Shown here piece after piece: positions 618 through 24,826 of a DNA stretch of 32,254 bases (its first letter is position 1; the number at the start of each line of letters is the position of its first letter). A program made the position numbers and the translations under genes. The DNA comes from Lacunisphaera sp. (GTDB lineage Bacteria; Verrucomicrobiota; Verrucomicrobiia; Opitutales; Opitutaceae): contig SIBQ01000026.1 in assembly GCA_009695095.1 (NCBI GenBank), positions 1 to 32,254 of the forward strand. The letters are read 5' to 3'. Below the pieces are notes generated by a model that was not told the origin of the DNA, made no database searches, and saw only the letters and a list, made by a program, of their open reading frames with translations.

Positions 618-2486
618 ATGGGGCAGGACAGCACACGTCAGGCGGCGGACCTCTCCGCTCCGACCACCCTGACGCGCCGCGACTTTCTGGGCTCCGGCGC
701 GCTGGCCGGTTCCTTGCCGGCTTTGTCCCAGACTATGCCCCCCTCGCTGGGCGCCGCCGAGTCCGTGCCCGCGGGACCGCGCCGTTTGTCGGCGCACCGC
801 AATCTCTTCAACGGCGACTGCAACTTCCTCTTCTACAATCCGGAGCTCTGGCAGCCGGAAGGCGGGGCCTACAGCGCCCGGGCCATTCACCGCTATCTCG
901 GGACCATCGCGGACAGCGGCGTCGACACCCTGCTGATCAATCCCAACACCCAGGTCGCGTGGTATCCGACGAAGAAACTGGAATACCTGCTCCAGGACTA
1001 TCGCCGGGGTGATGTCGCATTCACGCGGTCAGTCGCGGCGGGTCTCGCGGGCATGGCGCCGGAGCTGGCGGAGAAGTTCGCCCGGAACATGGTGGAGATG
1101 CTCGATCTCTACCTGGATCTCGCCGAGGCCGGCGTGGACTGGCTGGCGGAGTGCGCCCGGGCCTGCCGCGCTCGCGGCATCAGCCCGTGGCTGAGCTACC
1201 GGATGAATCCCACGCACTTTTCCAGCGCGCCGGAAAGCCCTGTGAACTGCCGGCTTTTCCGCGACCCGCGCAACCGGCTCTCCGGCCGCGTGCCCGACGC
1301 CACCGGCAGCACGCAGGCGGCCTGGGTCGGCCTGAACTACGGCCAGCCGGCCGTGCGCGACCACATGTTCGCGATGATCCGCGAGGGCGTTGAGTCCCAT
1401 GATTACGAGGGACTCGAGCTGGACTGGCTGCGCCATCCGCTCTGCCTCGAGGCGCCCGCCTCCCAGAAACAGATCGACGGGATGACCGACTGGTTCGCCG
1501 CGATCCGCGCCCTCACCAAGGCCCGCCGGCCCGACTACATCCTCGGCGTGCGCGCCCCGGCCAACCTGCCCTACCTGCGCAGCATCGGCATCGACCTCAA
1601 GGCCCTGGCGCGGCGCGGTCTCATCGACTGCTGCACCTTCAGCAATTTCTGGCAGACTTCCTGGGAAATGCCGCTCGACGAATTACGGCGCGAGCTCGGC
1701 CCCGACCTCGCCATCTACGGCGGCATGGAAGACGCGCCCAACTGGCTCGAAACTCACGCCCCCTCCCTCACTGAGCGGCCGGCGGGCCCCGACGTCCAGC
1801 TCGCCGGCGACAACGCCTTCCATGCCAAGAAAAACCAGGAGGGCGCCCTGCGCGTGCGCGGCACCCGCTACCTGACGGCCAGCGCCGAGCTGATCCGCGC
1901 CAACGCCGCGGGCAAGCTCGTGCTCGGTGCCGACGGCCTGGAACAGTTCAACTTCTTCGTCACCGACCAGGTGCGCGTGCCCGGGCTGCGGGCGGACTAC
2001 TCCGCGCTCCGCCGGCTCGCCGACCTGGAATTCCTGCGCGGCCAGGAGAAGCACTACGCGTTCAACACCGCCTCGGTCCTGACGACGAAGATATGGGATG
2101 TGGCCGAGCAATTGCCGGTGCGGATCGCGCCGCGCCAGCGGCGCGCGCTGCGCTTGCCGATGTGCGCCGAGCCCGCCGGCGCGGACCTGATGCTCGTAGT
2201 CCAGCTCGTGCTGGACCGCGCTCAGCCTGGTGAGGCTTGCGGGATCAGCCTCAACGGCGCCTGGCCGGTCTTCGAGCGCACGGAGACGGGCAATCTCCTG
2301 TTCCCCGCGGGACCCTACACAAGGCACGTCGAGGAGCACCGCGCCTGGAATTACATCCTGGATTGCGGCACGATCCGCGACGGCTGGAACGAGATCGTCC
2401 TCTACAATGAGTCGGCGGGGGAGCTATCCGTCGCCGGCTTGGAGCTGGGCCTCAAGCGCCGGGGCGGGCCTGTCGAAAACCCATGA
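618..2486 (+). CDS. Tat-exported TIM-barrel glycoside-hydrolase-like protein
   Basis: This 622-residue protein has a twin-arginine signal (R20-R21 in TRRDFLGSGALAG), so it should be exported folded. The mature part begins with a FNGDCNFLFY strand, then TIM-barrel-like segments. The DYEGLELDWLRHPL segment (about residue 265) resembles the catalytic strand of glycosidase-like families related to GHL10/DUF4434. Asp and Glu in ELDW are candidate catalytic acids. From about residue 490 a beta-sandwich-like region (SLNGAWPVFER, WNEIVLYN) looks like an accessory domain. The start follows the upstream stop by two bases and the stop overlaps the MFS start as ATGA, indicating translational coupling. 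I cannot assign it to a numbered CAZy family; export plus a coupled transporter suggests release of a sugar outside the cytoplasm. Confidence 0.75.
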   Translation: MGQDSTRQAADLSAPTTLTRRDFLGSGALAGSLPALSQTMPPSLGAAESVPAGPRRLSAHRNLFNGDCNFLFYNPELWQPEGGAYSARAIHRYLGTIADSGVDTLLINPNTQVAWYPTKKLEYLLQDYRRGDVAFTRSVAAGLAGMAPELAEKFARNMVEMLDLYLDLAEAGVDWLAECARACRARGISPWLSYRMNPTHFSSAPESPVNCRLFRDPRNRLSGRVPDATGSTQAAWVGLNYGQPAVRDHMFAMIREGVESHDYEGLELDWLRHPLCLEAPASQKQIDGMTDWFAAIRALTKARRPDYILGVRAPANLPYLRSIGIDLKALARRGLIDCCTFSNFWQTSWEMPLDELRRELGPDLAIYGGMEDAPNWLETHAPSLTERPAGPDVQLAGDNAFHAKKNQEGALRVRGTRYLTASAELIRANAAGKLVLGADGLEQFNFFVTDQVRVPGLRADYSALRRLADLEFLRGQEKHYAFNTASVLTTKIWDVAEQLPVRIAPRQRRALRLPMCAEPAGADLMLVVQLVLDRAQPGEACGISLNGAWPVFERTETGNLLFPAGPYTRHVEEHRAWNYILDCGTIRDGWNEIVLYNESAGELSVAGLELGLKRRGGPVENP

Positions 2487-3871
2487 TCTTCCCGACCAAA
2501 CAGCGCGACCCCGAGCTTTATCCCTACCGGCGCGGGTTCTACTTCTCGTTTTTCAACGCGCTCAACTGGCAGGTGGCCATTGGGACACCCACCGTGCTCT
2601 TCATGCAGCAATTGGGCGCCAATTCCTTTCAGGTGGGACTCGTGTTCTCCTGGACTTTTTTACTCACGCCAGCCCAAGTTCTGTCCACCACGCTGCTGTC
2701 GCGTCACGGCTACAAGCGGTTGACCATGGCGGGTTGGGGGGCACGCAGCGTCTGCCTGCTCGTGCCCATCGGCCTTTGCCTGCTCGCCCCGTCCGACCCG
2801 GTGCCGTGGATGATCAACGCCATGGTGGGGGCGACATTCTTCTATTGCCTCCTCCGCGCCATCGGCACCTCCGCTCTCACCACCTGGTTCTACCAGATTG
2901 TGCCGGCGGAGCTGCGCGGCCGCTACTGGGCGACCGACCAGCTCACCACGGGAGTCGCCATCGGCGTGTCGCTGCTGGTCTATGCGGTTTTCTTCACCGT
3001 GCTGCCGCCCTACCAGGCCTTCATCCTGCTCTACCTCATCGCCGTGCTCGGTGCGCTCTTCGCCTACCAGCAGCTGCGACAGCTGCCCGACGCGGAAAAA
3101 CCCAAGCCGATCAGCTTCGAAAAGGTCCTGACCGAGACGCCGCGGCTGATGACGACGCCGAGTTTCTTCCGCACCTACCTGTGGATCTCGGTCGCCTTCT
3201 TCGCCGGGATCACGCCGCTGGCCCCGTTTGCCGCCTATTATCTGAAGACTTCCGCCGGCGTCAGCTCGGCCCAGATCATCCTCCTGACGATGTTGACTTA
3301 CGTCGGCCTGATCGTGGCGAACATCGCGATGCGAAAGCACATGGATCAGATCGGGGCGAAGCCCTTCTTCAAAGGCGCCTTCCTGTGTTACGCGCTCATC
3401 TCCGTCGCCTGGATCGTGTTTCTGTTCACGGGCGGCCGGGCTTACTGGACCCTGCCGCTGCTTTTCTTCCTGCAAGGAGTGGGTTCCGGCTTCTGGAATT
3501 CCGCCAACCTGAGCTACCTCGTGAAGATCCTGCCCGAGCACGACCGCGCCCTGCCCGTCTCGATCCACGGCGCCGTCATGACGTTAATCGGCGGCTGCAC
3601 GCCCGTGCTGTGGGGCCTGTTCCTCAAGGCGCCGGGCGCGGTGCCCGCCGTCGATGTGCCGGTCTTCGAGGGTTACTATGCCAGCCTGCTGGTGATGTGC
3701 ATCGCCATGCTGTTTTTTGTCCGCAAACTGCCCGAGACCGCCGGCCCCGTCGGCCCCATCTTCCAGGGCAGCTGGGTGCTGCGGCCCTTCCGTGCCGTGG
3801 CGACGCTCGTGAACTTGATCGAGGACGACTCCATCCACAAAGAGACCAAGAAGCCGGACCCGGGCGCTTAA
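2483..3871 (+). CDS. MFS transporter
   Basis: This 462-residue polytopic protein has about 12 hydrophobic segments split by a cytoplasmic loop near residues 195-225 (KPISFEKVLTETPR), the usual two-times-six MFS layout. An RGRYWATDQ motif after a transmembrane segment resembles the R-G-R/K loop of sugar-type MFS porters. The ATG at 2483 overlaps the stop of the exported glycosidase-like gene by 4 bases, so uptake of that enzyme's product is the obvious guess. The stop codon interlocks with the stop of the convergent aldolase remnant in a shared TTAA, leaving no room for a separate bidirectional terminator. The substrate cannot be read from sequence. Confidence 0.88.
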   Translation: MIFPTKQRDPELYPYRRGFYFSFFNALNWQVAIGTPTVLFMQQLGANSFQVGLVFSWTFLLTPAQVLSTTLLSRHGYKRLTMAGWGARSVCLLVPIGLCLLAPSDPVPWMINAMVGATFFYCLLRAIGTSALTTWFYQIVPAELRGRYWATDQLTTGVAIGVSLLVYAVFFTVLPPYQAFILLYLIAVLGALFAYQQLRQLPDAEKPKPISFEKVLTETPRLMTTPSFFRTYLWISVAFFAGITPLAPFAAYYLKTSAGVSSAQIILLTMLTYVGLIVANIAMRKHMDQIGAKPFFKGAFLCYALISVAWIVFLFTGGRAYWTLPLLFFLQGVGSGFWNSANLSYLVKILPEHDRALPVSIHGAVMTLIGGCTPVLWGLFLKAPGAVPAVDVPVFEGYYASLLVMCIAMLFFVRKLPETAGPVGPIFQGSWVLRPFRAVATLVNLIEDDSIHKETKKPDPGA

Positions 3872-4122: not shown

Positions 4123-4149
4123 AGGCAAGATGGCAATCGCCGCAGCGGC

Positions 4150-5160
4150 TCATTCGCCAGCCGGTTGGGCGGCCGAGATAATGTTCAGGAGCGGACGGCC
4201 TTCGTCAAAGCGCGCGAGGTTCTGCGCGAAGATGTCCCAGAGCCGCCGTTTGAAGTGCGGGCTCAGGCTCGAGCCGGAGATATGCGGACTGAAGATGACG
4301 TTGGGAAAACGCCAGAGCGGATGCTCTGGCGGCATCGGATAGTGGTAGTGCGTGTCGATCGCCGCCCCGGCAATCCAGCCTTCGCGCAGGGCGCGGAGCA
4401 GCGCCGCCTCGTGCACGATCGGCCCGCGGGCCGGATTGAGGAGGAAGGCATGGTGTGGCAGGGCCTGTAGCTCGCGTTCGCCGATCAGGCCTTCTGTTTG
4501 CTTCGTCAGCGGCACGGCCACGATGAGAAAATCCAGCCCGGCGAGAAACTCCAGCTCCTCGCCCTGCCGGAACACTCGGTCCGGCAGGACACCGTCCGCG
4601 TCCCCGGTGCCGGGCACGGTGTAAATTTCCTCCCGGGGGCCGGCCCCGTTCCGCGTGAGCACATGCACGCGCAGACCCATGGCCTTCGCCAGCCGGGCGG
4701 TCTCGCGCCCGATGCCGCCATAGCCCCAAAGCCCGACCGTGAGCCCGCGGATCTCCCGCTGAAAAATAGCCGAGCGGTCCCACACCGCCGCCTCCTGGTT
4801 GCGGAGCATCTGCCGGAAATCGCGCGCCAGGTTCACCATCATCGCCACGTTCCACTCGGCGATTGGCACATCAAAACAGCCGCGGCAATTTGTGGCGCGC
4901 ACATCGCGCGCCGGCAGATCGAGGCCGAAGAGCTGGTTGTAGCCGGTGGAGGCGAGCTGCACCCACTTCCAGGCGGCCATCACCGGATGGTTGCTCGGGG
5001 GGAACGTGCAAAACAGGACGTCCGCATCGGCCACCAGTTCGGCCGGCAGCGCCCGCGCCGTCTCGCCCGGAGGATTGATCACCTCGAAGCGGTGTCGCCC
5101 CGCGGCGCGCAGCCGGGCAAGAACCGCTTCCTCGACGGGAACATCGATGACGATCTTCAT
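4150..5160 (-). CDS. D-2-hydroxyacid dehydrogenase with Tyr in place of catalytic Glu
   Basis: This 336-residue protein has the two-domain plan of NAD(P)-dependent D-2-hydroxyacid dehydrogenases. The Rossmann loop is G146-Y-G148-G-I-G151, the substrate Arg is R245 (NPARGPIV) and the catalytic His is H293 (SPHISG). The acidic position, normally Glu in an EP dipeptide, is Y274-P275 here (IDTHYHYP), so the usual His-Glu relay is missing. A PGTGD insertion at about 183-187 is shared with the paralogues at 8826 and 17646. The gene follows an enolase-superfamily dehydratase by 6 bases, suggesting it acts on that enzyme's 2-keto product or a related 2-hydroxy acid. Substrate and direction are unknown. 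Confidence 0.85.
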   Translation of the reverse strand: MKIVIDVPVEEAVLARLRAAGRHRFEVINPPGETARALPAELVADADVLFCTFPPSNHPVMAAWKWVQLASTGYNQLFGLDLPARDVRATNCRGCFDVPIAEWNVAMMVNLARDFRQMLRNQEAAVWDRSAIFQREIRGLTVGLWGYGGIGRETARLAKAMGLRVHVLTRNGAGPREEIYTVPGTGDADGVLPDRVFRQGEELEFLAGLDFLIVAVPLTKQTEGLIGERELQALPHHAFLLNPARGPIVHEAALLRALREGWIAGAAIDTHYHYPMPPEHPLWRFPNVIFSPHISGSSLSPHFKRRLWDIFAQNLARFDEGRPLLNIISAAQPAGE

Positions 5161-5166
5161 GCCCGG

Positions 5167-6405
5167 TCAGTCACGGAGGATCTTGCCGGGGACGCTGTTG
5201 AACTCTCCGCTGCCCGGCTTGAAGGGATAGCGGCGCTTGATTTCGTCGGTCAGCACCACGCCCCAGCCCGGCCGGTCCGGCGGCAGCATGTAGCCGTCCT
5301 TCATCACGAGCCCGCCGTCGATCAGATCGGAGTGCAGGCCCGCGTAGTCCGGCGCGACCTCCAACATGCAGGTGTTGGGCGCGGCAAAGCCCGCGTGGAT
5401 GTTCTGCATGAGCGAGGCGCCGGCTCCCCAGGCGTGCGTTGCGATCTTGCGGCCGCGCTCCTCCATCATCTTGGCCACTGCCATGAACTCGCCGATGCCG
5501 CCGGTGAAGGACGCGTCCGGCTGGCCGATGTCGAAGCAGTCCTGCGAGACGAAGACCTTCCACTCGTAGGAGGCGGTTAGGCACTCGCCGCCGGCGATCG
5601 GCGTCGTGGTGGCCCGGCAGAGCTCCGCATAGCCCCACGGATCGGTGTAGTGCAGCGGCTCCTCGAAGAAGACTAGGTTGAACGGCTCCACCGCCTTGGC
5701 GGCCGCGATGGCGATTTCCACCGTCCAGGTCTGGCCCGGGCTGTTGCCCATGTGGCCGTCGAGCATGAGCCACGCCTCCGGTCCGGCGTGCTTCCGCATG
5801 AAATCCAGTTTGTCCGCCTCGAAGTCGGCGGCGGCGGCCGGCGTCATCGGGGTGAACCAGCCCGCATCGGGCGTGCGGCTGCCGGTCGCGACCTTGAGGC
5901 CGCGGAATCCGAGCGAGAAGTAGTGGTCGATTTTTTTCGCCAGACGGTCCTTCGGGTAGTTGGCCGGGCCGCCGGTGGCGTAGCACGGCAAGCGCGTGTG
6001 CTGGCAGCCGCCGAGCAGCGCGTGCACCGGCTGACCCAGGAGCTTGCCCTTCAGGTCCCAGAGGGCGGCCTCGATGCCGTTGATGACCGAGGCGCCCAGC
6101 CCGACTCGGCACCAGAAGTTGCCGCACTGATACATCCGCCGCCACAGCTCGGGGATGTCGTCCACCGTCTGGCCGATGAGGATCGGCTTGAAGAACTCGA
6201 CGATGGCCGGCACGGCCTCGGGGCAGAAATAGCCGGCGTAGGTCTCGCCGATGCCGGTGTGCGGGCCATCGGTCAGGATCTCGATGAAGGCGGCGCTGCG
6301 CAGCTTGCGGGCCTCGCGGATAAACGGATCGTTGGTGCACGGGCCGGTCAGGAGCGTGGTGTGGACGTCGGTGATCTTCAAGGGAGTGGAAATAATCCGG
6401 CTCAA
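5167..6405 (-). CDS. Enolase-superfamily sugar-acid dehydratase (mandelate racemase/MLE type), module 1
   Basis: This is a 412-residue protein if the TTG at 6405 is used, which overlaps the preceding remnant's stop by 4 bases. A TTG at 6381 would give the LKITDV start that matches the MKITD/MKITG starts of its paralogues; I cannot decide between them. Numbering from 6405: capping domain 10-135, barrel Lys K171, metal ligands D216, E248/E249 and E274, and H324. D216-G-H218 gives the DxH arrangement seen in D-galactonate and mannonate dehydratases, where the His is the acid that expels the C3 hydroxyl. A dehydratase making a 2-keto-3-deoxy sugar acid is therefore likely. It is closely related to the protein at 9828 and precedes a D-2-hydroxyacid dehydrogenase by 6 bases. 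Confidence 0.87.
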   Translation of the reverse strand: MSRIISTPLKITDVHTTLLTGPCTNDPFIREARKLRSAAFIEILTDGPHTGIGETYAGYFCPEAVPAIVEFFKPILIGQTVDDIPELWRRMYQCGNFWCRVGLGASVINGIEAALWDLKGKLLGQPVHALLGGCQHTRLPCYATGGPANYPKDRLAKKIDHYFSLGFRGLKVATGSRTPDAGWFTPMTPAAAADFEADKLDFMRKHAGPEAWLMLDGHMGNSPGQTWTVEIAIAAAKAVEPFNLVFFEEPLHYTDPWGYAELCRATTTPIAGGECLTASYEWKVFVSQDCFDIGQPDASFTGGIGEFMAVAKMMEERGRKIATHAWGAGASLMQNIHAGFAAPNTCMLEVAPDYAGLHSDLIDGGLVMKDGYMLPPDRPGWGVVLTDEIKRRYPFKPGSGEFNSVPGKILRD

Positions 6406-6686
6406 TAGACCGCGCGGCCGCTGGTGAGATCGAAGGTGAAGCCGGTCGTGAAGGAGGATTCCGGCGAGACGATGAACGCCGCCATCGCGGCGGCCTCGTC
6501 GAGGGTGCCGCAGCGTTTCATGGGGATCTTGTCCGTGTTGGCCTTGACCTGCTCCGGCGGCATGGCGTCGACCAGCGGGGTCTGGTTTACGGCGAGCGTC
6601 GCGCCTTCGGCGCGCAGGCGTCGCGCGATGGCGAGGCCCGCGGTGATGATGGCCTTCTGGTCCTTGAAGCGGGAATAATTGTTCAT
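6402..6686 (-). pseudogene. Internally deleted short-chain dehydrogenase
   Basis: The 94 residues are the two ends of a classical SDR of about 250 residues joined in frame. The N-terminus (KAIITAGLAIARRLRAEG) lacks the middle of the TGxxxGxG cofactor loop, as if about 5 residues had dropped out between two glycines. After ATLAV the sequence jumps to NQTPLVDAMPPEQ, which belongs near residue 185 of an intact SDR, then continues to a normal C-terminus (SPESSFTTGFTFDLTSG). The catalytic Ser, Tyr and Lys are gone, so it cannot be an oxidoreductase. The frame is intact and the stop overlaps the next gene's start by 4 bases, so it may still serve translational coupling. An assembly artefact is the other explanation. 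Confidence 0.8.
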
Positions 6687-6698
6687 GGGAATTGCGGC

Positions 6699-7601
6699 TC
6701 AGGCCCGGCGCCAGCCGGCGGGCACGGCCGCCTTGAAGACCTCGAAGTCCGCCTCGGTCGCACCGGCGTAGGGCGGGAGCAGGCGGAGCGGGAACGTGGG
6801 GTCGCTCATCCGGTAGAGCATCTTGTCATAGGCCCCGTCGATGTGGAACTTGCCGCCCGCGGCCTTGAGGCCCGCGACCACCGCCTTGAGTTCCTCCACG
6901 TCGGCCGCGCGCCGGGCGTCGGTTCCCGCCACGAACTGCTTGGCGCGCTCCGGGTGGATCGAGGCGAGCGAGATGAGCAGCCCCACGTCGTGGGTCCGCC
7001 GGGCGATGGTGTAGCCCATCTCGGTGATGTAGAAACGCAGGCGCGGCGTCATGGTCATCAGGTCGGCGATGACCGCCGGATCCGTGGTGCTGTTCTTGAC
7101 CGCAATGAGGTTCGGGTGCGCGGCGGCTAGGCGGCGGTATTCGACGGAAGTCAGCAGACGCTTCGTCCGCATCAGGTTGTAGTGATGGAACTGGCAGTCG
7201 GGAAACCGCCCGCAGGTCTCGGCGAAAAACCGGTCCACCTCACGGTCGTTCAAGGCGCCCCATGACGGCAGCGAGAGCTGAAACAGGCGGAAGCCGAGCG
7301 CATAGCAGCGCTGGATGCGCTCGATGATGGTGGGCAGTGACAGCGAGATCAGGCCGACCATCGGCGTGACCTGCGCTTCCCGGGCGCTGCCCCAGAAAGC
7401 CCGGGTGATCTGGTCGAACTGCGACTCCGTGACGGCGTAGCCTTCGCCCGCCGTGCCGAAAACATAGAAATGACGCGTTAGCTCGCGGGCCAGGGTGTGC
7501 ACCTGGCGGCGAAACTGGTCTTCCTGGAATTCAAAGCGGTCGTTCCAAGGAACGACGGCGGTGGCGAGGATGGCGGGGGCGGTTTCGGCGGTTGTTTTCA
7601 T
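6699..7601 (-). CDS. DapA/N-acetylneuraminate lyase family aldolase
   Basis: I chose the ATG at 7601: it overlaps the upstream gene's stop by 4 bases and gives 300 residues, the normal family length. Sequence upstream in this frame is low-complexity antisense. The TIM-barrel aldolase has the conserved G52-E53 (GTAGEG) carboxylate-binding loop, catalytic Tyr Y141 (HHYNLMR) and Schiff-base Lys K169 (LIAVKNS). The family includes dihydrodipicolinate synthase, N-acetylneuraminate lyase, KDG aldolase and 5-keto-4-deoxyglucarate dehydratase. Its position among sugar-acid dehydratases favours pyruvate-yielding cleavage, or dehydration, of a 2-keto-3-deoxy acid rather than lysine biosynthesis. HHYNLMR instead of the common YNxP suggests a distinct subgroup. 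Confidence 0.87.
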   Translation of the reverse strand: MKTTAETAPAILATAVVPWNDRFEFQEDQFRRQVHTLARELTRHFYVFGTAGEGYAVTESQFDQITRAFWGSAREAQVTPMVGLISLSLPTIIERIQRCYALGFRLFQLSLPSWGALNDREVDRFFAETCGRFPDCQFHHYNLMRTKRLLTSVEYRRLAAAHPNLIAVKNSTTDPAVIADLMTMTPRLRFYITEMGYTIARRTHDVGLLISLASIHPERAKQFVAGTDARRAADVEELKAVVAGLKAAGGKFHIDGAYDKMLYRMSDPTFPLRLLPPYAGATEADFEVFKAAVPAGWRRA

Positions 7602-8359
7602 GGGAGGCGATGGGCTGGGAGAATAGTGGTGATGGTGGCGGCCACCTGGTCCGCCAGTGCCTCGCAACCTTCCGGGGTGAAATGAACGTTGTTCGGGCGC
7701 TGGAGGTGAGGACGAGAGGTGACGAAGGCATGGAGGTCGTCGCAGGTGACGCCCGTCTCGCGCATCACCTGCTCGGCGGCGGTGTTGTAGGCACGCTCGC
7801 TGCCGGCCAAGCGACCGACCGTGCCGCCGGGCACCGGCGTCGTGTTCGCGAAAACCAACCGGGCGCCGGTGCGCTGGAGCCGCCCCACCAGTTGCCGGAG
7901 GTTCGCGGCATACTCCAACGGCGTGGCCAGCGGGCGATCTTTCGGCCCCGGCACGATGTAAGTGCCGGCAGAGTCCATGAACTTCAGGTCGTGCAGGCCG
8001 AAGCTGAAGTAAACCACGTCCCACTTCCCCGCCCCGAGCCAGCCGTCCAGCTGTTCCAGGCCGAAGACCGTCGGTCCGCAGTTGTCCGGCGGACGATGGA
8101 CATTCGCCCGGCCGGCCAGCCGATGGCGGACCTCCCGGGTGTAGCCGATCGAGATCGAATCCCCGATGATCAGGACACGCGGGAGTCCCGGCACGTCTTC
8201 GACTGGCAGAAGCGCCGGGGCCAACGAGGCGTCGAGGGCGGCGCTGAGGCCGATCTTGTTGCGGTCGATTTTGGCTTGGAGGGAATTCATGGTGGCAAGG
8301 AGCAGGAAGCCGCACACCAGAGCGGAGGTTTTAGCCGGGAAGTTGAGGTGTGTGCTCAT
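7598..8359 (-). CDS. Exported SGNH-hydrolase (esterase) family protein
   Basis: The ATG at 8359 overlaps the upstream YhcH stop as ATGA and gives 253 residues. Residues 10-29 form a hydrophobic signal-like segment ending LQA, so the protein is probably periplasmic. Block I is GDS with nucleophile S68 (LIIGDSISIGY); H226 lies in NNVHFTPEG near the C-terminus. The canonical acid three residues before that His is Asn here (N223), so the triad may be altered. Members of this fold remove acetyl or other acyl groups from sugars. Next to an anomerase and a DapA-type aldolase, a sugar de-esterase is plausible but unproven. Both ends overlap neighbours by 4 bases. Confidence 0.82.
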   Translation of the reverse strand: MSTHLNFPAKTSALVCGFLLLATMNSLQAKIDRNKIGLSAALDASLAPALLPVEDVPGLPRVLIIGDSISIGYTREVRHRLAGRANVHRPPDNCGPTVFGLEQLDGWLGAGKWDVVYFSFGLHDLKFMDSAGTYIVPGPKDRPLATPLEYAANLRQLVGRLQRTGARLVFANTTPVPGGTVGRLAGSERAYNTAAEQVMRETGVTCDDLHAFVTSRPHLQRPNNVHFTPEGCEALADQVAATITTILPAHRLP

Positions 8360-8811
8360 ACCATCACCTTCACCACGACTTTCAGCACCTCGGTGGGAGC
8401 GTCCCACGCGCAGGAGGGTGCGTGACCGTCCTCGGGAAACAAGAGCACGAATTGTCCGGGCCGCACGGGCACCGGCACCATGTCCGGTATGCCGCTGAAG
8501 AGCGCGGCGTCGACGTTGGGGTCGAAGGGCATCGTCACGTGGGTGAGCTGGGCCAGAGGCGCCCAGTAGATGATTTCGCGCCCCTTCACGACGTATTGGA
8601 TGTCGATGTATTTGCGGTGCGCTTCCAGCTGTTTTTCCGCGACGGGCTTGGTCATGTGTTGCTGCACGAAGGCATAGATCTCCTCGCCGTCGATCTCGTG
8701 GCGGCCGATGGACGCATTGTCCGGCAGATCGCGGAGAAAAGCGAAGGCGCGCGCAAAGCGCGGCGAGAGGGGGGTGTATTGGGAACAGTTGGCGAGGGTG
8801 TCGAGGATCAT
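8356..8811 (-). CDS. YhcH/YjgK/YiaL (DUF386) family sugar anomerase-like protein
   Basis: At 151 residues this is the family's usual length. The hallmark segment is LEAHRKYIDIQYVVKG (E63, H65), with a second metal-site segment PEDGHAP (H130) and a C-terminal KVVVKV strand (K144, K148). These form the cupin-like metal site. The E. coli relative YhcH (NanQ) interconverts ring forms of sialic acids, and other members are encoded in sugar-acid loci. Here it would help open cyclic 2-keto-3-deoxy acids for the aldolase or dehydrogenases (inference). The protein has no signal peptide and should be cytoplasmic. It follows a D-2-hydroxyacid dehydrogenase by 14 bases and overlaps the SGNH gene by 4. 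Confidence 0.9.
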   Translation of the reverse strand: MILDTLANCSQYTPLSPRFARAFAFLRDLPDNASIGRHEIDGEEIYAFVQQHMTKPVAEKQLEAHRKYIDIQYVVKGREIIYWAPLAQLTHVTMPFDPNVDAALFSGIPDMVPVPVRPGQFVLLFPEDGHAPSCAWDAPTEVLKVVVKVMV

Positions 8812-8825
8812 GATGATGGAAAGAA

Positions 8826-9824
8826 TCAGTAACCGTAACGGTGATTGACGGGGTTAAGCAACGGCGCCCCGGCGCAGAAGCGTCGGAGATTTTCCGCGAT
8901 CAGCCCGACCATGAGGTCCCAGAAGCCGTCGTAGACGCCTGACATGTGCGGGGTCATGATCAGGTTCGGGGTGGAGAAGAATTCATGTGGCCCGTTCAGC
9001 GGCTCCTTCACGTAGCAATCGACAGCGGCTCCGGCCAGCACCCCGGAGCGCAGGGCCTCGGCCAGGACCGGTTCCGGCACGATACCGCCGCGAGAGATGA
9101 TGATGAGGTGGGCGGAACGCTTGAGGAGTGCGAGTTGGGCCCGGCCCAACATGCCCTCGGTCTGCAGCGTGCTGGGCACGGTCACGACAACGAAGTCGCA
9201 CTGCGGGAGAAACTCCGCCAGTTGCGCGGGCCCGAACCAACCGGCGGGGATCTGACCCTCGGGATCGCCGGTGCCGGGCCAGACGTTGTAACCATCATCT
9301 CGGTGGGCCTTCGGATCACGCTTCAGGCAAAGCACGTTCATTCCTAGGGCGGAGAGCTGTCGTGCGCACTCCCGGCCGATACTGCCGTAGCCAATGATGC
9401 CCACCTTCTGGCCGCGCAAGAGCCGCCCGGCCAGGGCCAGCCGGTTGGGCCATTTCTGCGTCTCCTTGTATTGCAGCACCTGAGGCATGCTATGCGCCAG
9501 CATGAGGACGGCGCAGGTCACATACTGCGCGATGGGGACGCCGTGCGTGCCGCTGGCCGTCGTGACCGGAAGGGCGGTGGCCCGGATCGGGTGGCCGGCC
9601 AGTTGGTTTGAACCCGCCGAGAGCAACTGGACCCAGCGCAGGCGGCCCCAAGCCTCCAAATTCCGGGGCACCGGTTCGGTGACCAAAATATCCACGTCCG
9701 ATCCGTCGAGCTGCTCGACCGTGCCGGCGTTTTGCTCCACGAGTTCTAGGCCCGGGCAGGCCGCCTGCAGCAAAGCGCGGTGGGCCTCGCTGAACTTGAA
9801 GACTGTGTTGAGGAGCAGCTTCAT
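8826..9824 (-). CDS. D-2-hydroxyacid dehydrogenase, module 2
   Basis: This 332-residue enzyme keeps the full catalytic set: R245 (SRGGIV), E274 (YVKEPL) and H293 (MTPHMSG), with the cofactor loop G145-Y-G-S-I-G150. Like the proteins at 4150 and 17646 it has the PGTGDPEG insertion near 183-190. Extended identity with the 17646 protein (GYGSIGRECARQL, IIISRGGIV, ENLRRF) marks them as paralogues. It starts 3 bases after the stop of a dehydratase gene, the tightest of the three dehydratase-dehydrogenase junctions. A 2-keto acid/2-hydroxy acid interconversion with NAD(P)H is expected; the physiological substrate is unknown. Confidence 0.9.
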   Translation of the reverse strand: MKLLLNTVFKFSEAHRALLQAACPGLELVEQNAGTVEQLDGSDVDILVTEPVPRNLEAWGRLRWVQLLSAGSNQLAGHPIRATALPVTTASGTHGVPIAQYVTCAVLMLAHSMPQVLQYKETQKWPNRLALAGRLLRGQKVGIIGYGSIGRECARQLSALGMNVLCLKRDPKAHRDDGYNVWPGTGDPEGQIPAGWFGPAQLAEFLPQCDFVVVTVPSTLQTEGMLGRAQLALLKRSAHLIIISRGGIVPEPVLAEALRSGVLAGAAVDCYVKEPLNGPHEFFSTPNLIMTPHMSGVYDGFWDLMVGLIAENLRRFCAGAPLLNPVNHRYGY

Positions 9825-9827
9825 CCG

Positions 9828-11033
9828 TCAGGTGCGTTCGCCGGAATTTGATTTGGAGGCGAACCGGGTGAGGATTTCCGGCGTGAGCCGGACGCCCAAG
9901 CCCGGCGCGGTGGGCAGGCCGACGGTGCCCTCGCGGACCGTGAAGGGGTCGAGCAGAATGGCGTCCTGGATGGACTTGGCCGCCAGCACATGCTCCAGCC
10001 AGTCGACCGAGTGCGAGGCGGCGGCCAGATGCCACGAGGCCGCGAGCGAGGGGCCCATCGAGGCGCCGGTGTGGATCGCCGTGCTGAGGTTGAAAGCCTC
10101 GGCGTGATGGATGATCCGGACGGTCTCCTGTAAACCGCCCGCAAACCCGAGGTCGGGCTGGATCACATGGACGGCCTGGCGCGTGATGAGCGGATGGAAC
10201 TGGTCGAGGCCGCACAGACTTTCGCCGCCGGCGATCGGAATGCGCGAGCGGGCCCGCAGCTCGCAGTAGCCGTCGAGGTTGGTGTAGGCGAGCGGCTCCT
10301 CGTAGAAGCGCAACCTGTGGGGTGCCAGTGCCTCCGCGATCGCGACCGCCTCGCTGACCGGGATCGGATTTGGCACGCCGCCCTGATGCCCGTCGATCGC
10401 GAGGTCCATGGCGCCGCCAAATTCCCGGCGCAACCGGGCAAACACGCCCTCGAGCACGGTCAGTTTTTCCGCAAACGGGAATTTCACGGGCTCCAGCCGG
10501 GCCTGCCGGTCGCCGGCGGGCGGCGGCAGATTAAAAAGACCGGTGGAAAGCTTGGCGGCGCGGTAGCCGCGCTTCGCGTAGTAATCGATTTTCCTGACCG
10601 TGTCCTCCACCGGCCACAGCGCCGGCCCCCCCGAGGCATAGACCGGAATGCGGTCACGGACCCTGCCGCCCAACAGCTGATAGACCGGAACGCCCAGAGC
10701 CTTCCCCTTCAGGTCCCAGAGGGCGAGTTCGATGCCGCTGATCACGCTGCGGCCTGCGCCGGAGCGCGCCCACCAGACCGAATCATCACAAATCGCCCGC
10801 GTGACCTCGAGGATCTGCAGCGGATCGCGGCCGACCAGCACCGGCGCGAAGTAGGCCACCATGGCCGGCACGGCATCCGGGGCGAAGTAACCCCAGGTGC
10901 ACTCCCCCAGCCCATCCAGGTTGCCATCCGTCTCGATGCGGATGATGGCCGTCGAGTGGGCTGAGTTGGGGAACGACGGATCGTCGGTCCATTGGGTGGT
11001 CAGCAAATGAGTCCGGACACCTGTGATCTTCAT
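9828..11033 (-). CDS. Enolase-superfamily sugar-acid dehydratase, module 2
   Basis: This 401-residue protein starts MKITGVRTHLL. Catalytic positions: K161 (AAKLSTG), D214 with H216 (AIDGHQ), E245/E246 (YEEPL), E271 (AGGESL) and H321 (IHTGAS). The DxH pair plus a later His matches dehydratases of the D-galactonate type rather than racemases. Capping-domain features (GYFAPDAVPAMV, SGIELALWDLKGK) match the module 1 enzyme at 5167 (GYFCPEAVPAIV, NGIEAALWDLKGK), so the two arose by duplication. The insert after K161 (about 165-188) has a different length and sequence from that of module 1, which may reflect a different substrate. The product should be a 2-keto-3-deoxy acid, used by the dehydrogenase encoded 3 bases downstream (inference). 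Confidence 0.88.
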   Translation of the reverse strand: MKITGVRTHLLTTQWTDDPSFPNSAHSTAIIRIETDGNLDGLGECTWGYFAPDAVPAMVAYFAPVLVGRDPLQILEVTRAICDDSVWWARSGAGRSVISGIELALWDLKGKALGVPVYQLLGGRVRDRIPVYASGGPALWPVEDTVRKIDYYAKRGYRAAKLSTGLFNLPPPAGDRQARLEPVKFPFAEKLTVLEGVFARLRREFGGAMDLAIDGHQGGVPNPIPVSEAVAIAEALAPHRLRFYEEPLAYTNLDGYCELRARSRIPIAGGESLCGLDQFHPLITRQAVHVIQPDLGFAGGLQETVRIIHHAEAFNLSTAIHTGASMGPSLAASWHLAAASHSVDWLEHVLAAKSIQDAILLDPFTVREGTVGLPTAPGLGVRLTPEILTRFASKSNSGERT

Positions 11034-11042
11034 GGGAATGAC

Positions 11043-12008
11043 TTAAGGGCGGACGATGCGCAGGAGCGGCTCGCCCTGGACGAGGCGGCTGATGTTGCCC
11101 GCGATGGCGCGCCAGCGATAGGCCATGGTCTCGGCCGTGGGCTTGTGCGGTGTCATGATGATGTTGTCCAACTCGTGAAACGGGAGCTTCGCCGGACGCT
11201 GCGTCTGGCCGGGTGCCGCGGGATACTGATACCAAACGTCCAGTCCCGCCCCGGCGATGCGGCGGGTGCGCAGCGCGTCATAGAGCGCCTGCTCGTTGAT
11301 GACCGGACCGCGGCCGACGTTAACGATGAAGGCCGAGGGTTTCATGAGCGCAAACTCGCGCGCGGAGATGAGATCGACTGTGCCAGCGGCTGCGGGAATC
11401 GCCACGACGACAAAGTCCGCCAAGGGCAAGTGGCGGGGTAGTTCATCGAGTCCGCCCAAGTGGCGCAGGCCGGGCCCGACCCTATCCGCCGCGGGCCGGC
11501 GCGTGAGCACCGACACCTCCAGGCCGAGGAAACGCCCCCAGCGCACCAACTCCCGGCCGATCTGTCCGGCCCCAAGCACGAGCAGACGACGGCCGATCAT
11601 TTCCGGCAAATACGGTTGCCCGGGCAGCCAGTCGCCTTGGCGCAACGCGGCATCGAGCCGGAACAGGCCCTTATGGAGAGCGAGCAGATGCATGAATGCC
11701 TGCTCCGCCACGCCGCGCTCGTGGCCGTAGACATTGCAGACGGTGCAACCGGCGGGAACGCTAGGAAAATCGATGCCATCGACGCCCGCACCGGGCGAAT
11801 GAATCAGGCACAACGGCGCACCGGCCGCGGGTTTCCAGGCCGGCCGGTAGGCGGCGTTGACCAGCACGTCGGCATCGGCCAGGAGGGCCGCCATGGCTGC
11901 GTCATTCTCCCCGCCGAAGGGCACCAATACATGCGGCACCGTCAGTTGGGCCCCAAAGTCGGAGGCAAACAGGCGGGGGACAACAATCCCCAGCGGGCGC
12001 GTGGTCAT
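11043..12008 (-). CDS. Divergent D-2-hydroxyacid dehydrogenase lacking the usual Glu, module 3
   Basis: This 321-residue protein has cofactor loop G146-A-G-Q-I-G151, Arg R233 (NVGRGPV) and His H288 (MTPHKPT). The acidic position reads Y262-P263 (LDVWYQYP) instead of Glu-Pro, the same change as in the protein at 4150. It lacks the PGTGD insertion of the other three dehydrogenases and has a longer linker before the His (about 264-282), so it is from a separate branch. It sits 6 bases after the module 3 dehydratase and 9 bases before the module 2 dehydratase. It is probably an active NAD(P)-dependent oxidoreductase with altered acid-base chemistry, but this is not proven. Confidence 0.84.
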   Translation of the reverse strand: MTTRPLGIVVPRLFASDFGAQLTVPHVLVPFGGENDAAMAALLADADVLVNAAYRPAWKPAAGAPLCLIHSPGAGVDGIDFPSVPAGCTVCNVYGHERGVAEQAFMHLLALHKGLFRLDAALRQGDWLPGQPYLPEMIGRRLLVLGAGQIGRELVRWGRFLGLEVSVLTRRPAADRVGPGLRHLGGLDELPRHLPLADFVVVAIPAAAGTVDLISAREFALMKPSAFIVNVGRGPVINEQALYDALRTRRIAGAGLDVWYQYPAAPGQTQRPAKLPFHELDNIIMTPHKPTAETMAYRWRAIAGNISRLVQGEPLLRIVRP

Positions 12009-12014
12009 GGCAGT

Positions 12015-13250
12015 TCAGTCGAAGAGGGCTTCGCCCGGAGCGAGGTGCTGGCGGCAGACCTCGCGATCAAGTTCCACCCCCAGGCCCGGTGCATCGGTCA
12101 TCACCACCTGGCCGTCGCGGAAGAGCGGCACGTCGCGCCGCACAAAGGAGCCGATCCACGGTGTTTCAATGAAGTGGTATTCGAGGCCGAGGAAGTTGCG
12201 CGAGGCAACGCCGACATGCGCCGCCGCAATGGTTGCCAGCGCTCCGCCGTTGCCGTGAAAGGCGACCGGCAGGTGGTTCAGTTCGGCGAAATCCGCGATG
12301 CGCCGCAACTCGTGCATGCCGCCGCAGAACATCACATCGGGATGCAGGATATCGCAGGCACCTGCGTCGACAAACAGGCGGAACTGCTCGGCGATAAACA
12401 TCTCGCCGATGCAGATCGGCACCGGGCTCTTGGCCCGCACCTGCGCGCAGGAATCCGGGTTGGTGATCGGCACCGGGTCCTCCAGCCAGAGGAGGTTCAG
12501 GGGGCGCAGCCGCTCCAGCAGGCGGATCACGTCCGGCACGTTATACTGCATGTGGCAGTCGGCGCAGATTTCGAACTCTGGTCCCGCCGCCTCGCGCACG
12601 GCGGTGAGCCGCTCGACGATCCGGTTCATCTGTTCCAGTGACAGGCTGCGGTTCCAGACGTCGCGGACGCACTCGGGTGCCATGAAGTCGATGTCGAACT
12701 TCATCTGCGTAAAGCCGCTGGCGACCGTATCGCGGGCCATGGCCCGCCAGGCGCCAAGATCCGTGACATCATCCGGGGAACTGCGATCGAGATAGACCTT
12801 GGCCTGCTCGCGGAATTTGCCGCCGAGCAGGTTGTAGGCCGGGGTCTTGAGCGCCTTGCCGATCAGGTCGCAGAGCGCGATGTCGACACCGCTCGCCGCC
12901 CACACCACCGGGCCCCACGGCGTCGCGGTCGGAGCGCACATGCTCACGGCGATGATGTTGTTCTTCCCCATCGGGCCGCGCGGCACGCCGGGCGGATTCG
13001 GCGCCTGCGTGCCGTAGAGCATTTCCGAGACGATCGCGTTCGCCGCAAAGGGATCGCGTCCGAGGAAATACTCGCGCATGTAGGCGATGCCCTGGCGCAC
13101 TCCCATGAAGTCGTCGACCTCGCCGAGCCCGTGGATCCCGGCATCGGTATCCACCATCACGACGACCTTGGCGATGCGGGCTGTGCCGCCGCCGACGCCG
13201 TGATTGCGCGGCCCCCAGAGCCGCATCATCCGGATATCCGTGATTTTCAT
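12015..13250 (-). CDS. Enolase-superfamily dehydratase of mannonate/galactonate dehydratase type, module 3
   Basis: This 411-residue protein starts MKITDIRMMRLWGP. Barrel residues: K184 (MKFDID), metal ligands D231, E257 (LEDPV) and E283 (IGEMF), acid candidate H233 in D-C-H, and H332 (FHGNGG). A long insert at 77-117 in the capping region, with PPGVPRGPMGKNN, recalls the specificity loop of the mannonate/galactonate dehydratase subgroup. It is a different subgroup from the dehydratases at 5167, 9828 and 14241. Reaction expected: dehydration of an aldonate or uronate-derived acid to a 2-keto-3-deoxy acid, with Mg2+. It is paired with the dehydrogenase encoded 6 bases downstream. Confidence 0.87.
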   Translation of the reverse strand: MKITDIRMMRLWGPRNHGVGGGTARIAKVVVMVDTDAGIHGLGEVDDFMGVRQGIAYMREYFLGRDPFAANAIVSEMLYGTQAPNPPGVPRGPMGKNNIIAVSMCAPTATPWGPVVWAASGVDIALCDLIGKALKTPAYNLLGGKFREQAKVYLDRSSPDDVTDLGAWRAMARDTVASGFTQMKFDIDFMAPECVRDVWNRSLSLEQMNRIVERLTAVREAAGPEFEICADCHMQYNVPDVIRLLERLRPLNLLWLEDPVPITNPDSCAQVRAKSPVPICIGEMFIAEQFRLFVDAGACDILHPDVMFCGGMHELRRIADFAELNHLPVAFHGNGGALATIAAAHVGVASRNFLGLEYHFIETPWIGSFVRRDVPLFRDGQVVMTDAPGLGVELDREVCRQHLAPGEALFD

Positions 13251-13279
13251 AAGCAGAGCGTCTGCGCCGGCGCCTTATT

Positions 13280-14194: not shown

Positions 14195-14240
14195 GGCGAA
14201 GCAGTTGTAGGAAGGGGGCGAAGTGATCGCAGCCCGCGAG

Positions 14241-15368
14241 TCAGGTGGAGCTTTTCATATAGTGCCGCAGTTTTTGCTCATCCACCGCCACACCCAGGCC
14301 GGGGCGAGTGGGAACGGTCACGTGCCCGTCCGAGATTTGGAGCGGTTCGACCAGAAGGTCGTCGCGGAAGGGGTTTTCCACGTGGTCGAGTTCGAGCATC
14401 GGAGGCTCGGTGGTCCGGCCCCATGAGGCGTCGGGCAGCAGCGAGATGAGATGGGTCGAGGCGGCGATGACGAGGCCGCCCGCCCAGCAATGCGGCATGC
14501 ATTGCACGCCCCAGAGCCGCGCCAGCTCGGCGATGAAGAGGACCTCGCCGATGCCGCCCGCGAGGGCGACGTCGGGTTGTGCGATGTCCATGACCCCGCG
14601 GCACAGCGCCTCCTTGAACCGGGCGCGGGAAGTCAGGCCCTCGCAGGCGGCGATGGGAATGTCGAGGGTGTCAACCAGTTTCTCGTAGCCGGCGTAATCG
14701 GGTGCGCTCTGCGGCAGCGGCTCCTCCCACCAATAGTAGTCCAGCTCCTCGAGTGCACGGCCCATCTTGATCGCGCCGCCGAGGGCATACGCGCCGTTGC
14801 CGTCGGCCATGAGCTTGACGTCGGGGCCGACGGCGCGGCGCACGGCCTTGGCGGCAGCCAGGTCGCGGTCGTGGGGCTGGCCGCCGAGACGCATCTTCAT
14901 CGCGCGAAAGCCCGTCGCAGCCAGTTTCTCGGCCTCGCGCGGATAATACTCGGCGGGATCCTCGCCCTCGATGTAGTTCATCGCGGAGGCGTAGGCCTGC
15001 ACGCGGGGGCGCAGGCGGCCGCCGTAGAGCTCGGCGATGGGCAGGCCGAGGATCTGGCCGCGCAGGTCGTCGAGCGCGATCTCGACGCCGCCGATGGCCA
15101 TGCCGTTGCCGAAGCTCTGACCCCAGAGTTCGCGAGTGAGGGCGCGGCGATCGCAGGGGTCGCGGTCGCGCAGCAGCGGCGCGCAGTGGTCATCGATGAC
15201 GCCCTTCACGCCGGGCAAGGCGACGGTCTCGCCCCACCCTACCAGACCCTCGTCGGTCTCGATCCGGATGATGAGTGTCGTGCGCGTGCGGTAGTAGAAA
15301 TTCGCCGGCCCGGTTGGCTTCGACATCGGGTGGCTCAGCAGAAAGGTCTTCAGGTTTCTAATTTTCAT
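14241..15368 (-). CDS. Enolase-superfamily enzyme of mandelate racemase/MLE type with KxR motif
   Basis: This 375-residue protein starts MKIRNLKTFLL. Barrel residues: K158 and R160 in MKMR (the KxK/KxR general-base motif of the racemase/MLE branch), D189 (MADGNG), E215/E216 (WEEPL), E243 (ACEGL) and H293 (PHCWAGG). It has Asn (N191) where the other three family members here have the DxH His, so its acid-base machinery differs. The KxR plus His arrangement fits dehydratases or racemases acting on acid sugars. Unlike the other three it is not followed directly by a dehydrogenase; an exported HEAT protein comes next. The exact substrate is not predictable by eye. Confidence 0.87.
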   Translation of the reverse strand: MKIRNLKTFLLSHPMSKPTGPANFYYRTRTTLIIRIETDEGLVGWGETVALPGVKGVIDDHCAPLLRDRDPCDRRALTRELWGQSFGNGMAIGGVEIALDDLRGQILGLPIAELYGGRLRPRVQAYASAMNYIEGEDPAEYYPREAEKLAATGFRAMKMRLGGQPHDRDLAAAKAVRRAVGPDVKLMADGNGAYALGGAIKMGRALEELDYYWWEEPLPQSAPDYAGYEKLVDTLDIPIAACEGLTSRARFKEALCRGVMDIAQPDVALAGGIGEVLFIAELARLWGVQCMPHCWAGGLVIAASTHLISLLPDASWGRTTEPPMLELDHVENPFRDDLLVEPLQISDGHVTVPTRPGLGVAVDEQKLRHYMKSST

Positions 15369-15416
15369 GAGAATCGTGGGATTGAGCTTTGGGCGGAAGT
15401 TGAGGGAAAATCTGAT

Positions 15417-17616: not shown

Positions 17617-17645
17617 GGCAGTTTGCTGTTCGGTGAGGGACGCGG

Positions 17646-24816: not shown

Positions 24817-24826
24817 AAGGCCGGAG

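What the first reader, a model, noticed from the sequence alone, without database searches (positions are those of the whole stretch)
4150..13250. Three repeated dehydratase plus D-2-hydroxyacid dehydrogenase modules
Three times on the minus strand an enolase-superfamily dehydratase gene is followed within 3-6 bases by a D-2-hydroxyacid dehydrogenase gene (5167/4150, 9828/8826, 12015/11043). Modules 1 and 2 are related in their dehydratases; module 3 has a different dehydratase subgroup and a different dehydrogenase branch, yet the same order and spacing. Independent recurrence of the pairing suggests a functional unit: dehydration to a 2-keto-3-deoxy acid, then reduction at C2 to a 3-deoxy-2-hydroxy acid (or the reverse). 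Standard sugar-acid pathways phosphorylate or cleave the keto acid instead, so this may be an undescribed reductive branch, with each module serving a different sugar acid.
Basis: partly seen in the sequence, partly recalled or inferred. Interest (0 to 1): 0.78.

Follow-up and report, generated by a model that had tools for sequence, protein, structure and literature searches.

The report
Paired reductase–dehydratase genes for sugar acids
A bacterium carries several copies of a two-gene unit, a sugar-acid dehydratase next to a keto-acid reductase, which probably work one after the other to break down an unusual keto sugar acid; the pairing recurs in bacteria of many kinds, but its substrate is not known.

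Summary
Three dehydratase-dehydrogenase pairs lie on the minus strand with gaps of 6, 3 and 6 nt. The same gene run holds a fourth, split pair (DH4, DEH4). The pairing is a real unit: a dehydratase homologue is immediately adjacent in 68 of 80 DH1 loci with titles from about nine phyla, against 2 of 56 control 2-hydroxyacid dehydrogenase loci. DEH1 and DH1 occur in the same 7 of 288 genomes of the phylum.

The cluster encodes an aldolase with the N-acetylneuraminate-lyase active-site residues, which should consume the dehydratase product, and, convergent with DH1, a GH156-sialidase relative that keeps the carboxylate-binding residues. I favour reduction of a 2-keto sugar acid to the (2R)-aldonate, dehydration to the 2-keto-3-deoxy acid, then aldol cleavage (0.45). 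Substrate and direction are inferred. DH1 and DH3 carry Tyr in place of the usual catalytic Glu (79 of 79 readable DH1 relatives). The enzyme families are known; my ten literature searches, in an open-access library, showed no account of the pairing.

The parts
4150..5160 (-). DH1, D-2-hydroxyacid dehydrogenase family; Arg245 and His293 kept, Tyr274 at the usual catalytic Glu position
   Evidence: Pfam 2-Hacid_dh_C 2.2e-45; residue table over 80 relatives
5167..6405 (-). DEH1, enolase-superfamily (MR_MLE) dehydratase; TTG start, 5' end uncertain
   Evidence: Pfam MR_MLE_C 3.8e-45; K171, D216, H218, E248, E249, E274, D297, H324 in 65 of 65 rows, own copy included
6699..7601 (-). ALDO, DHDPS/N-acetylneuraminate-lyase-type aldolase (likely ATG at 7601; the longer 538-aa frame is not the gene)
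   Evidence: Pfam DHDPS 7.5e-5, 22.0 bits, just under the gathering score 22.1; GxxGE, Tyr-Asn and Lys in 11 of 11 rows, own copy included
7598..8407 (-). SGNH/GDSL-type esterase
   Evidence: Pfam Lipase_GDSL_2 3.7e-12
8356..8811 (-). DUF386 (YhcH/YjgK/YiaL), related to N-acetylneuraminate anomerase
   Evidence: Pfam 1e-41; NCBIfam acetylneur_anom 103.7 bits, under its cut-off 160
8826..9824 (-). DH2, D-2-hydroxyacid dehydrogenase family, catalytic Glu kept
   Evidence: Pfam 8e-43; alignment
9828..11033 (-). DEH2, MR_MLE dehydratase
   Evidence: Pfam 2.3e-48
11043..12008 (-). DH3, D-2-hydroxyacid dehydrogenase family, Tyr at the Glu position
   Evidence: Pfam 3e-40; alignment
12015..13250 (-). 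DEH3, MR_MLE dehydratase of another subgroup
   Evidence: Pfam 3.7e-54
14241..15368 (-). DEH4, MR_MLE dehydratase; best solved match 5olc (galactonate dehydratase)
   Evidence: Pfam 3.6e-63; phmmer 7.4e-70
15417..16319 (-). Kelch protein, NanM-like
   Evidence: Pfam NANM 7.9e-20
16336..17673 (-). MFS transporter (start approximate)
   Evidence: Pfam MFS_1 1.9e-45 on the longer ORF 16336-18060; start by comparison with G013
17646..18686 (-).
   Evidence: Pfam 8.2e-45; alignment
18727..19767 (-). GFO/IDH/MocA oxidoreductase
   Evidence: Pfam 3.1e-26
19821..21491 (-). sodium:solute symporter
   Evidence: Pfam SSF 4.2e-38
21488..22660 (-). FMN-dependent 2-hydroxyacid dehydrogenase family
   Evidence: Pfam FMN_dh 6.6e-126
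22667..25558 (-). cytochrome c, GMC oxidoreductase and gluconate 2-dehydrogenase subunit 3 (three genes)
   Evidence: Pfam
25668..27866 (-). TonB-dependent receptor
   Evidence: Pfam Plug 1.3e-8
618..2486 (+). ORFa, GH156-family-like glycosidase with a twin-Arg-type N-terminus by eye; no Pfam match
   Evidence: profile of 10 homologues vs 6rzd E 1.2e-44; Foldseek 7e-32 to 6s04
2483..3871 (+). MFS transporter following ORFa, convergent with DH1
   Evidence: Pfam MFS_1 2.5e-22

Best explanation
Each pair is a dedicated reductase-dehydratase couple in the catabolism of 2-keto sugar acids. The 2-hydroxyacid dehydrogenase (for DH1-DH3 probably with NADPH) reduces the C2 keto group of an imported 2-ketoaldonate that still has its 3-OH, giving a (2R)-aldonate. 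The enolase-superfamily enzyme next to it removes the C2 proton and the 3-OH, giving a 2-keto-3-deoxy acid. Net effect: reductive loss of the 3-OH, turning a keto acid that a pyruvate aldolase cannot cleave into one that it can. The products would feed the N-acetylneuraminate-lyase-type aldolase of the cluster. The DUF386 and Kelch proteins would set the anomeric form. A secreted GH156-type enzyme may release the keto acid from a glycoside. Shown: the pairing, its conservation, the families and the residues named below. Inferred: direction, cofactor, substrate, order of steps.
For: Pairing: in 68 of 80 DH1 loci an MR_MLE homologue is immediately adjacent on the same strand (65 upstream, 3 downstream, the 3 in Paenibacillus), against 2 of 56 control 2-HADH loci. 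DEH1 and DH1 occur in the same 7 of 288 genomes; DEH3 and close DH3 relatives in the same 2 of 288. Partner change: the G001:C91 DH is 60% identical to DH2 but its dehydratase is 27% to DEH2. Direction: ALDO keeps GxxGE, Tyr-Asn and Lys in 11 of 11 rows and lies in one run with DEH3-DH3 in G002 and near DEH1-DH1 in G155 and G229. DEH1 keeps the metal ligands, His-Asp dyad and Asp-x-His in 65 of 65 rows and has Ala or Gly where mandelate racemase has its second Lys; by recalled mandelate racemase logic that suits (2R) acids, the configuration that D-2-HADHs make. Arg at the cofactor position, read as NADPH-type (recalled), in 78 of 80 DH1 relatives and in window DH2 and DH3. A D-2-HADH family enzyme with 2-ketoaldonate reductase activity exists: GluC (PMC4870679, passages); 9m0t, 'Probable 2-ketogluconate reductase', is among the solved relatives of DH1, DH2 and DH3. 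ORFa homologues keep R129, H134, R202 and N346 of GH156 in 10 of 10.
Against: No activity has been measured. DH1 and DH3 have Tyr instead of the catalytic Glu, so ordinary keto-acid reduction is not assured; DH4 lacks the NADPH-type Arg. The acids shown with EnvSia156 are 3-deoxy (Neu5Ac, Neu5Gc, Kdn); for those this scheme fails, because there would be no 3-OH to eliminate. The aldolase was found in only 15 of 80 DH1 loci and ORFa in 12 of 80 (many loci are cut by contig ends, but of 39 loci with 7 kb on both sides only 18 have any of ORFa, ALDO, DUF386, Kelch). Six of 80 DH1 loci have no dehydratase homologue in the stretch held, and in G162 the two genes are 11 kb apart on opposite strands. 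Residues of EnvSia156 near the glycerol tail (Asp132, Tyr135) are Pro and Phe in the window copy.
Confidence: 0.45

Rival explanations
1. One reading: the dehydratase acts first on an aldonate and the dehydrogenase reduces the 2-keto-3-deoxy acid to a 3-deoxy-2-hydroxy acid, as an end product or for export.
For: The gene order is dehydratase first in 65 of 80. A synthetic pathway does dehydration then reduction (D-threonate to 2,4-dihydroxybutyrate; PMC10079672, passages). The aldolase was not found in 65 of 80 DH1 loci.
Against: An aldolase with the family's active-site residues in the same cluster competes for the keto acid. The product would be a dead end unless another pathway uses it; none was recognised. 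The order is reversed (DH first) in three Paenibacillus loci and in G001:C39, C91 and C14.
Confidence: 0.2
2. The dehydrogenase works downstream, on a small keto acid such as pyruvate, hydroxypyruvate or glyoxylate made after aldol cleavage, as a redox outlet.
For: Solved relatives of all three DHs include glyoxylate and hydroxypyruvate reductases.
Against: Three or four different DHs, each tied to a dehydratase, are not needed for one common product. DH1 and DEH1 co-occur in the same 7 of 288 genomes.
Confidence: 0.13
3. The dehydrogenase reduces a 3-deoxy ulosonic acid (sialic, Kdn or Kdo type), and the enolase-superfamily enzyme is an epimerase, or dehydrates the aldonate made from the aldose after aldol cleavage.
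For: GH156-like ORFa, DUF386, NanM-like Kelch and an N-acetylneuraminate-lyase-type aldolase in or next to the cluster. ORFa lies directly upstream of DH1, with no dehydratase homologue in the stretch held, in L114 and L119.
Against: NanE reaches the cut-off in 0 of 9 genomes examined; the other type of epimerase was not sought. The dehydratases keep Asp-x-His (DEH1-3) and the His-Asp dyad.
Confidence: 0.15

Closest known systems
Fungal 2-keto-L-gulonate reductase GluC (D-glucuronate pathway)
   Same: D-isomer-specific 2-hydroxyacid dehydrogenase family; reduces a 2-ketoaldonate to an aldonate
   Different: NADH-dependent and fungal; makes L-idonate, for which the paper suggests oxidation to 5-keto-D-gluconate, not an enolase-superfamily dehydratase (PMC4870679, passages)
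Galactonate, arabinonate and mannonate dehydratases of the enolase superfamily
   Same: MR_MLE domains, metal ligands, His-Asp dyad; DEH4 matches 5olc galactonate dehydratase best
   Different: All four score far below the NCBIfam equivalog cut-offs; substrate not assigned
Nan-type sialic acid catabolism (lyase, anomerase, NanM mutarotase, sialidase)
   Same: Related aldolase, DUF386, Kelch and GH156-like genes in or next to the cluster
   Different: NanE over the cut-off in 0 of 9 genomes; dehydratase/dehydrogenase pairs are not part of the nan pathway as I recall it
Synthetic D-threonate to 2,4-dihydroxybutyrate route
   Different: Engineered; the reductase is a malate dehydrogenase variant (PMC10079672, passages)
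SAR202 enolase-superfamily expansions
   Same: Many MR_MLE paralogues in one genome
   Different: The paper proposes racemisation of recalcitrant organic matter; the term 2-hydroxyacid dehydrogenase does not occur in it (PMC6946804; listing, passages)

Membership tests
Enolase-superfamily (MR_MLE) acid-sugar dehydratases | MR_MLE N and C domains over Pfam cut-offs | tested here: met
   DEH1-DEH4
Enolase-superfamily (MR_MLE) acid-sugar dehydratases | three metal ligands and His-Asp dyad | tested here: met
   18 of 18 rows by eye; 65 of 65 rows for DEH1, own copy included; roles recalled
Named dehydratases (galactonate, arabinonate, mannonate, rhamnonate and others) | score over the NCBIfam equivalog cut-off | tested here: not met
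   best scores 158-179 bits; cut-offs of those best models 311 or 650
D-2-hydroxyacid dehydrogenases | NAD-binding domain 2-Hacid_dh_C | tested here: met
D-2-hydroxyacid dehydrogenases | catalytic Arg and His | tested here: met
   window DH1-DH4; 79 of 79 readable DH1 relatives
D-2-hydroxyacid dehydrogenases | catalytic Glu (recalled as usual; Gln in formate dehydrogenases) | tested here: not met
   Tyr in DH1 and DH3; Glu in DH2 and DH4
N-acetylneuraminate lyase / DHDPS superfamily | GxxGE, Tyr and Schiff-base Lys (recalled) | tested here: met
   11 of 11 rows: window and the 10 homologues over 700 nt
N-acetylneuraminate lyase / DHDPS superfamily | Pfam gathering score | tested here: inconclusive
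   22.0 bits against 22.1
GH156 sialidases | sequence and fold similarity to EnvSia156 | tested here: met
   E 1.2e-44; TM to target 0.75 on a model of mean pLDDT 64.6
GH156 sialidases | Arg129, Arg202, Asn346, His134 | tested here: met
   10 of 10
GH156 sialidases | general base Asp14 | not tested
   outside the stretch aligned; D67 is a candidate
Classical Neu5Ac catabolism | NanE epimerase in the genome | tested here: not met
   0 of 9 genomes over the cut-off, one weak match in G316; several genomes are incomplete
2-ketoaldonate reductase plus aldonate dehydratase route | activities on 2-ketoaldonate and aldonate | not testable with these tools
   needs enzymes

The most novel reading that the evidence does not exclude
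A previously undescribed catabolic route for ketosidically bound 2-ulosonic acids that are not 3-deoxy: a secreted GH156-type enzyme frees the keto acid, and a dedicated NADPH reductase (with Tyr in place of the family's catalytic Glu) plus an enolase-superfamily dehydratase together strip the 3-OH so that a sialate-lyase-type aldolase can cleave it. The two-gene unit is spread over about nine phyla, has arisen or re-paired several times, and recurs as paralogous modules, perhaps for different epimers.
Probability: 0.2. Interest if true: 0.78.

Novelty: new variant of a known kind. Interest (0 to 1): 0.6.

Why it matters
The pairing is a strong handle on orphan enzymes. Many enolase-superfamily dehydratases and 2-hydroxyacid dehydrogenases have no assigned substrate; a partner fixed across phyla means that finding one substrate assigns the other. 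If the proposed order holds, it gives a compact way to turn a 2-ketoaldonate into an aldolase substrate, and points to an unrecognised class of natural keto sugar acids in the habitats of these bacteria.

Tried and rejected
1. Plasmid records: no DNA match to 4100-16350. Protein searches with DH1 and DEH1 found only relatives under 60% identity; not followed.

2. A 538-aa fused aldolase frame (6699-8315) was dismissed: GDSL covers its first half in another frame, and the aldolase begins near 7601.

3. A second structure model, of an unnamed 511-aa protein found near DH1 in 14 loci by the blast (13 rows aligned; mean pLDDT 84.6), gave only a generic five-bladed glycosidase-type fold (TM to query at most 0.43 in the 50 rows shown); no substrate clue.

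4. PF02826 search in 24 genomes of DH1 loci: the table was cut before the useful rows; not used.

5. Clusters of ORFs around DH1 include antisense frames; I set some aside by position and gave 10 representatives and 10 further neighbour ORFs to Pfam. Matches: BNR sialidase-like, DHDPS, PhyH, SDR, AXE1-like and other alpha/beta-hydrolase esterases, GDSL, HpcH/HpaI aldolase, aldo-keto reductase, GFO/IDH, FAD oxidoreductase, 6-bladed propeller; 6 of the 20 had none. BNR proteins are too varied to name the substrate.

6. C2 inversion by FMN_dh then DH4 was considered for module 4 only: FMN_dh stands beside DH4 in G013 and G001, but no FMN_dh homologue was labelled in the 80 DH1 loci.

7. Literature: ten searches showed no account of the pairing in their listings or in the passages that I opened. 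The library is open-access only. Passages of PMC2063504, PMC6254351, PMC10570557 and PMC7315737 were seen and add nothing on the pairing.


Full report
What is there. The window is one contig (G000:C29) of a 2.14-Mb, 41-contig genome. Its genus looks like Opitutaceae (Verrucomicrobiota): contig G001:C31 of the same genus has the same length (19794) and the same DH1 coordinates as JAEUGX010000048.1, titled Opitutaceae; this rests on a record title. Minus-strand genes run from 27866 to 4150. Order of transcription: TonB receptor; gluconate 2-dehydrogenase subunit 3; GMC oxidoreductase; cytochrome c; FMN_dh; SSF; GFO/IDH; DH4; MFS; Kelch; DEH4; a protein without Pfam match; DEH3-DH3; DEH2-DH2; DUF386; GDSL; ALDO; DEH1-DH1. 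On the plus strand, convergent with DH1, lie ORFa and an MFS gene.

Gaps within pairs are 6, 3 and 6 nt, and DH3 ends 9 nt before DEH2. The subgroup statements hold. Chance is excluded: 4 neighbouring domain pairs in the genome against 0.07 expected, 17 in ten genomes against 1.36 (lower bounds, as the MR_MLE list was cut). Pairing is not a general habit of these families: G028, with 51 listed MR_MLE and 19 2-Hacid_dh domains, has none; nor have G017, G021, G031 and G037.

Conservation. (1) Within 288 genomes of the phylum, close relatives of DH1 (over 350 bits; the next hits are DH2 and DH4 and their orthologues) occur in 7, and relatives of DEH1 (E up to 1e-60) in the same 7. They are adjacent in 6; in G162 they are 11 kb apart on opposite strands. 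Close relatives of DH3 (74% or more) and of DEH3 occur in the same 2. (2) In 21 genomes of the genus, 5 have DH1 at 74% or more (own included), each with DEH1 next to it. (3) A scan of one genome per species with an alignment of 10 DH1 relatives kept the best 80 of 214 matching loci. An MR_MLE homologue is immediately upstream in 65, immediately downstream in 3, on the same strand but farther in 4, and not seen in 6; 2 are cut by the contig end. Record titles name Verrucomicrobia, Acidobacteria, Planctomycetes, Armatimonadetes, Bacteroidetes, Firmicutes, Trueperaceae, Chloroflexi and Acidimicrobiia; MAG labels were not verified, and a few loci share a genome. (4) Controls: 56 distinct 2-HADH places, out of the 90 loci after dropping own, orthologous and duplicate places by hand, have an MR_MLE homologue within about 1.5 kb in 2. 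Eight wider stretches around less close relatives of DH1-DH4 (L098-L105, about 18-19 kb) were also read: 2 of 8 have an MR_MLE gene beside the DH (L100, L102), and L102 has a Kelch gene too. So looser pairing extends beyond the DH1 clade.

Independent recurrence. Four pairs lie in the cluster, and other genomes of the genus have more: G001:C39, G001:C91, G001:C14 and G006:C96/G002:C36, all in the order DH then DEH. Trees are incongruent: DH2 and DH4 are sisters (55% identity) while DEH2 and DEH4 are not (33%), and the C91 DH (60% to DH2) is paired with a dehydratase 27% identical to DEH2. Some deep nodes of the dehydratase tree are weak (0.18 and 0.51). Partners have been exchanged, or pairs have formed more than once.

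Active sites. 65 rows of DEH1 (64 adjacent copies over 900 nt plus the window's) all keep K171, D216, H218, E248, E249, E274, D297 and H324, and have Ala or Gly where mandelate racemase has its second Lys (motif roles recalled). Among 80 DH1 relatives Arg245 and His293 are kept in 79 of 79 readable, and Tyr replaces the usual Glu in 79 of 79. DH3 also has Tyr; DH2 and DH4 keep Glu. The cofactor-site residue is Arg in 78 of 80, and in window DH2 and DH3 but not DH4; I read this as NADPH preference from recalled rules.

Neighbours bearing on the route. ALDO matches DHDPS just under Pfam's cut-off (22.0 against 22.1 bits), but it and ten homologues from the 15 DH1 loci that have one (those over 700 nt) keep GxxGE, Tyr-Asn and Lys (11 of 11). 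Counts by blast in the 80 DH1 loci: ALDO 15, ORFa 12, DUF386 9, Kelch 8, at least one of these four in 33; of 39 loci with 7 kb on both sides, 18. In the 56 control loci none of the four appears, but with narrower flanks. In G002 the run is DEH3-DH3-DUF386-GDSL-ALDO. ORFa is a GH156 relative by profile (1.2e-44) and by fold (a modest model, mean pLDDT 64.6). By the alignment and the residues named in PMC6811678 (passages), the carboxylate-binding Arg129, Arg202 and Asn346 and the acid His134 are conserved in 10 of 10. Asp132 is Asp in 8 of 10, Pro in the window copy and Ala in L120, and Tyr135 is Phe or Gly. So a ketosidic acid, perhaps with a different tail, is likely. ORFa stands directly upstream of DH1 in L114 and L119 and upstream of DEH1-DH1 in four Larkinella loci. 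NanE is over the cut-off in 0 of 9 genomes examined, so the E. coli route for Neu5Ac is probably not the companion; the other type of epimerase was not sought.

Reasoning on order. An enolase-superfamily dehydratase needs a C2 hydrogen and a 3-OH. If DH oxidised C2 first, DEH could not act. If DH reduced the DEH product, the aldolase would lose its substrate. Reduction first is the only order of these three enzymes that puts them in one line, provided that the starting keto acid has a 3-OH. GluC shows that the family can reduce a 2-ketoaldonate (PMC4870679, passages), and 9m0t, 'Probable 2-ketogluconate reductase', is among the solved relatives of DH1, DH2 and DH3. I put this at 0.45 and not higher: no substrate is known, the Tyr substitution is unexplained, and the acids shown with GH156 are 3-deoxy.

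Verdict. The pairing is real, ancient or often remade, and I saw no account of it in the papers that I could search. The enzymes belong to known families and the scheme recombines known steps, so I file it as a new variant of a known kind.

Noticed in passing
window 618-2486 (+): GH156-like protein that no Pfam family matches; nine relatives 42-66% identical from records titled Verrucomicrobia/Opitutaceae, Bryobacterales and Larkinella. The window and L120 copies lack the Asp near the catalytic His.
   Followed up: partly
window 4150-5160 and 11043-12008 (-): Tyr replaces the usual catalytic Glu in two separate branches of 2-hydroxyacid dehydrogenases (DH1 and DH3), while DH2 and DH4 keep Glu.
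   Followed up: partly
window 14241-27866 (-): GMC/cytochrome c/FMN_dh/GFO/DH4/MFS/Kelch/DEH4 block conserved in G013 and, without the three pairs in the stretch read, in G001:C106: perhaps a separable pathway block.
   Followed up: partly
window 13280-14194 (-): Protein with no Pfam match between DEH3 and DEH4; in G013 a TonB receptor gene lies there instead and a 37% homologue lies elsewhere.
   Followed up: no
window 31814-32254 (-): Part of an integrase-core (rve) transposase gene at the contig end.
   Followed up: no
L193 and L190: Paenibacillus sp. and Verrucomicrobia loci with DH1 and two MR_MLE homologues each; in L193 one of them is beside a DH2-like gene.
   Followed up: no
G028 (whole genome): A 2.6-Mb genome of the same order with 57 MR_MLE_C matches; none of the 51 listed is next to a 2-Hacid_dh domain: a large unpaired expansion.
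   Followed up: no
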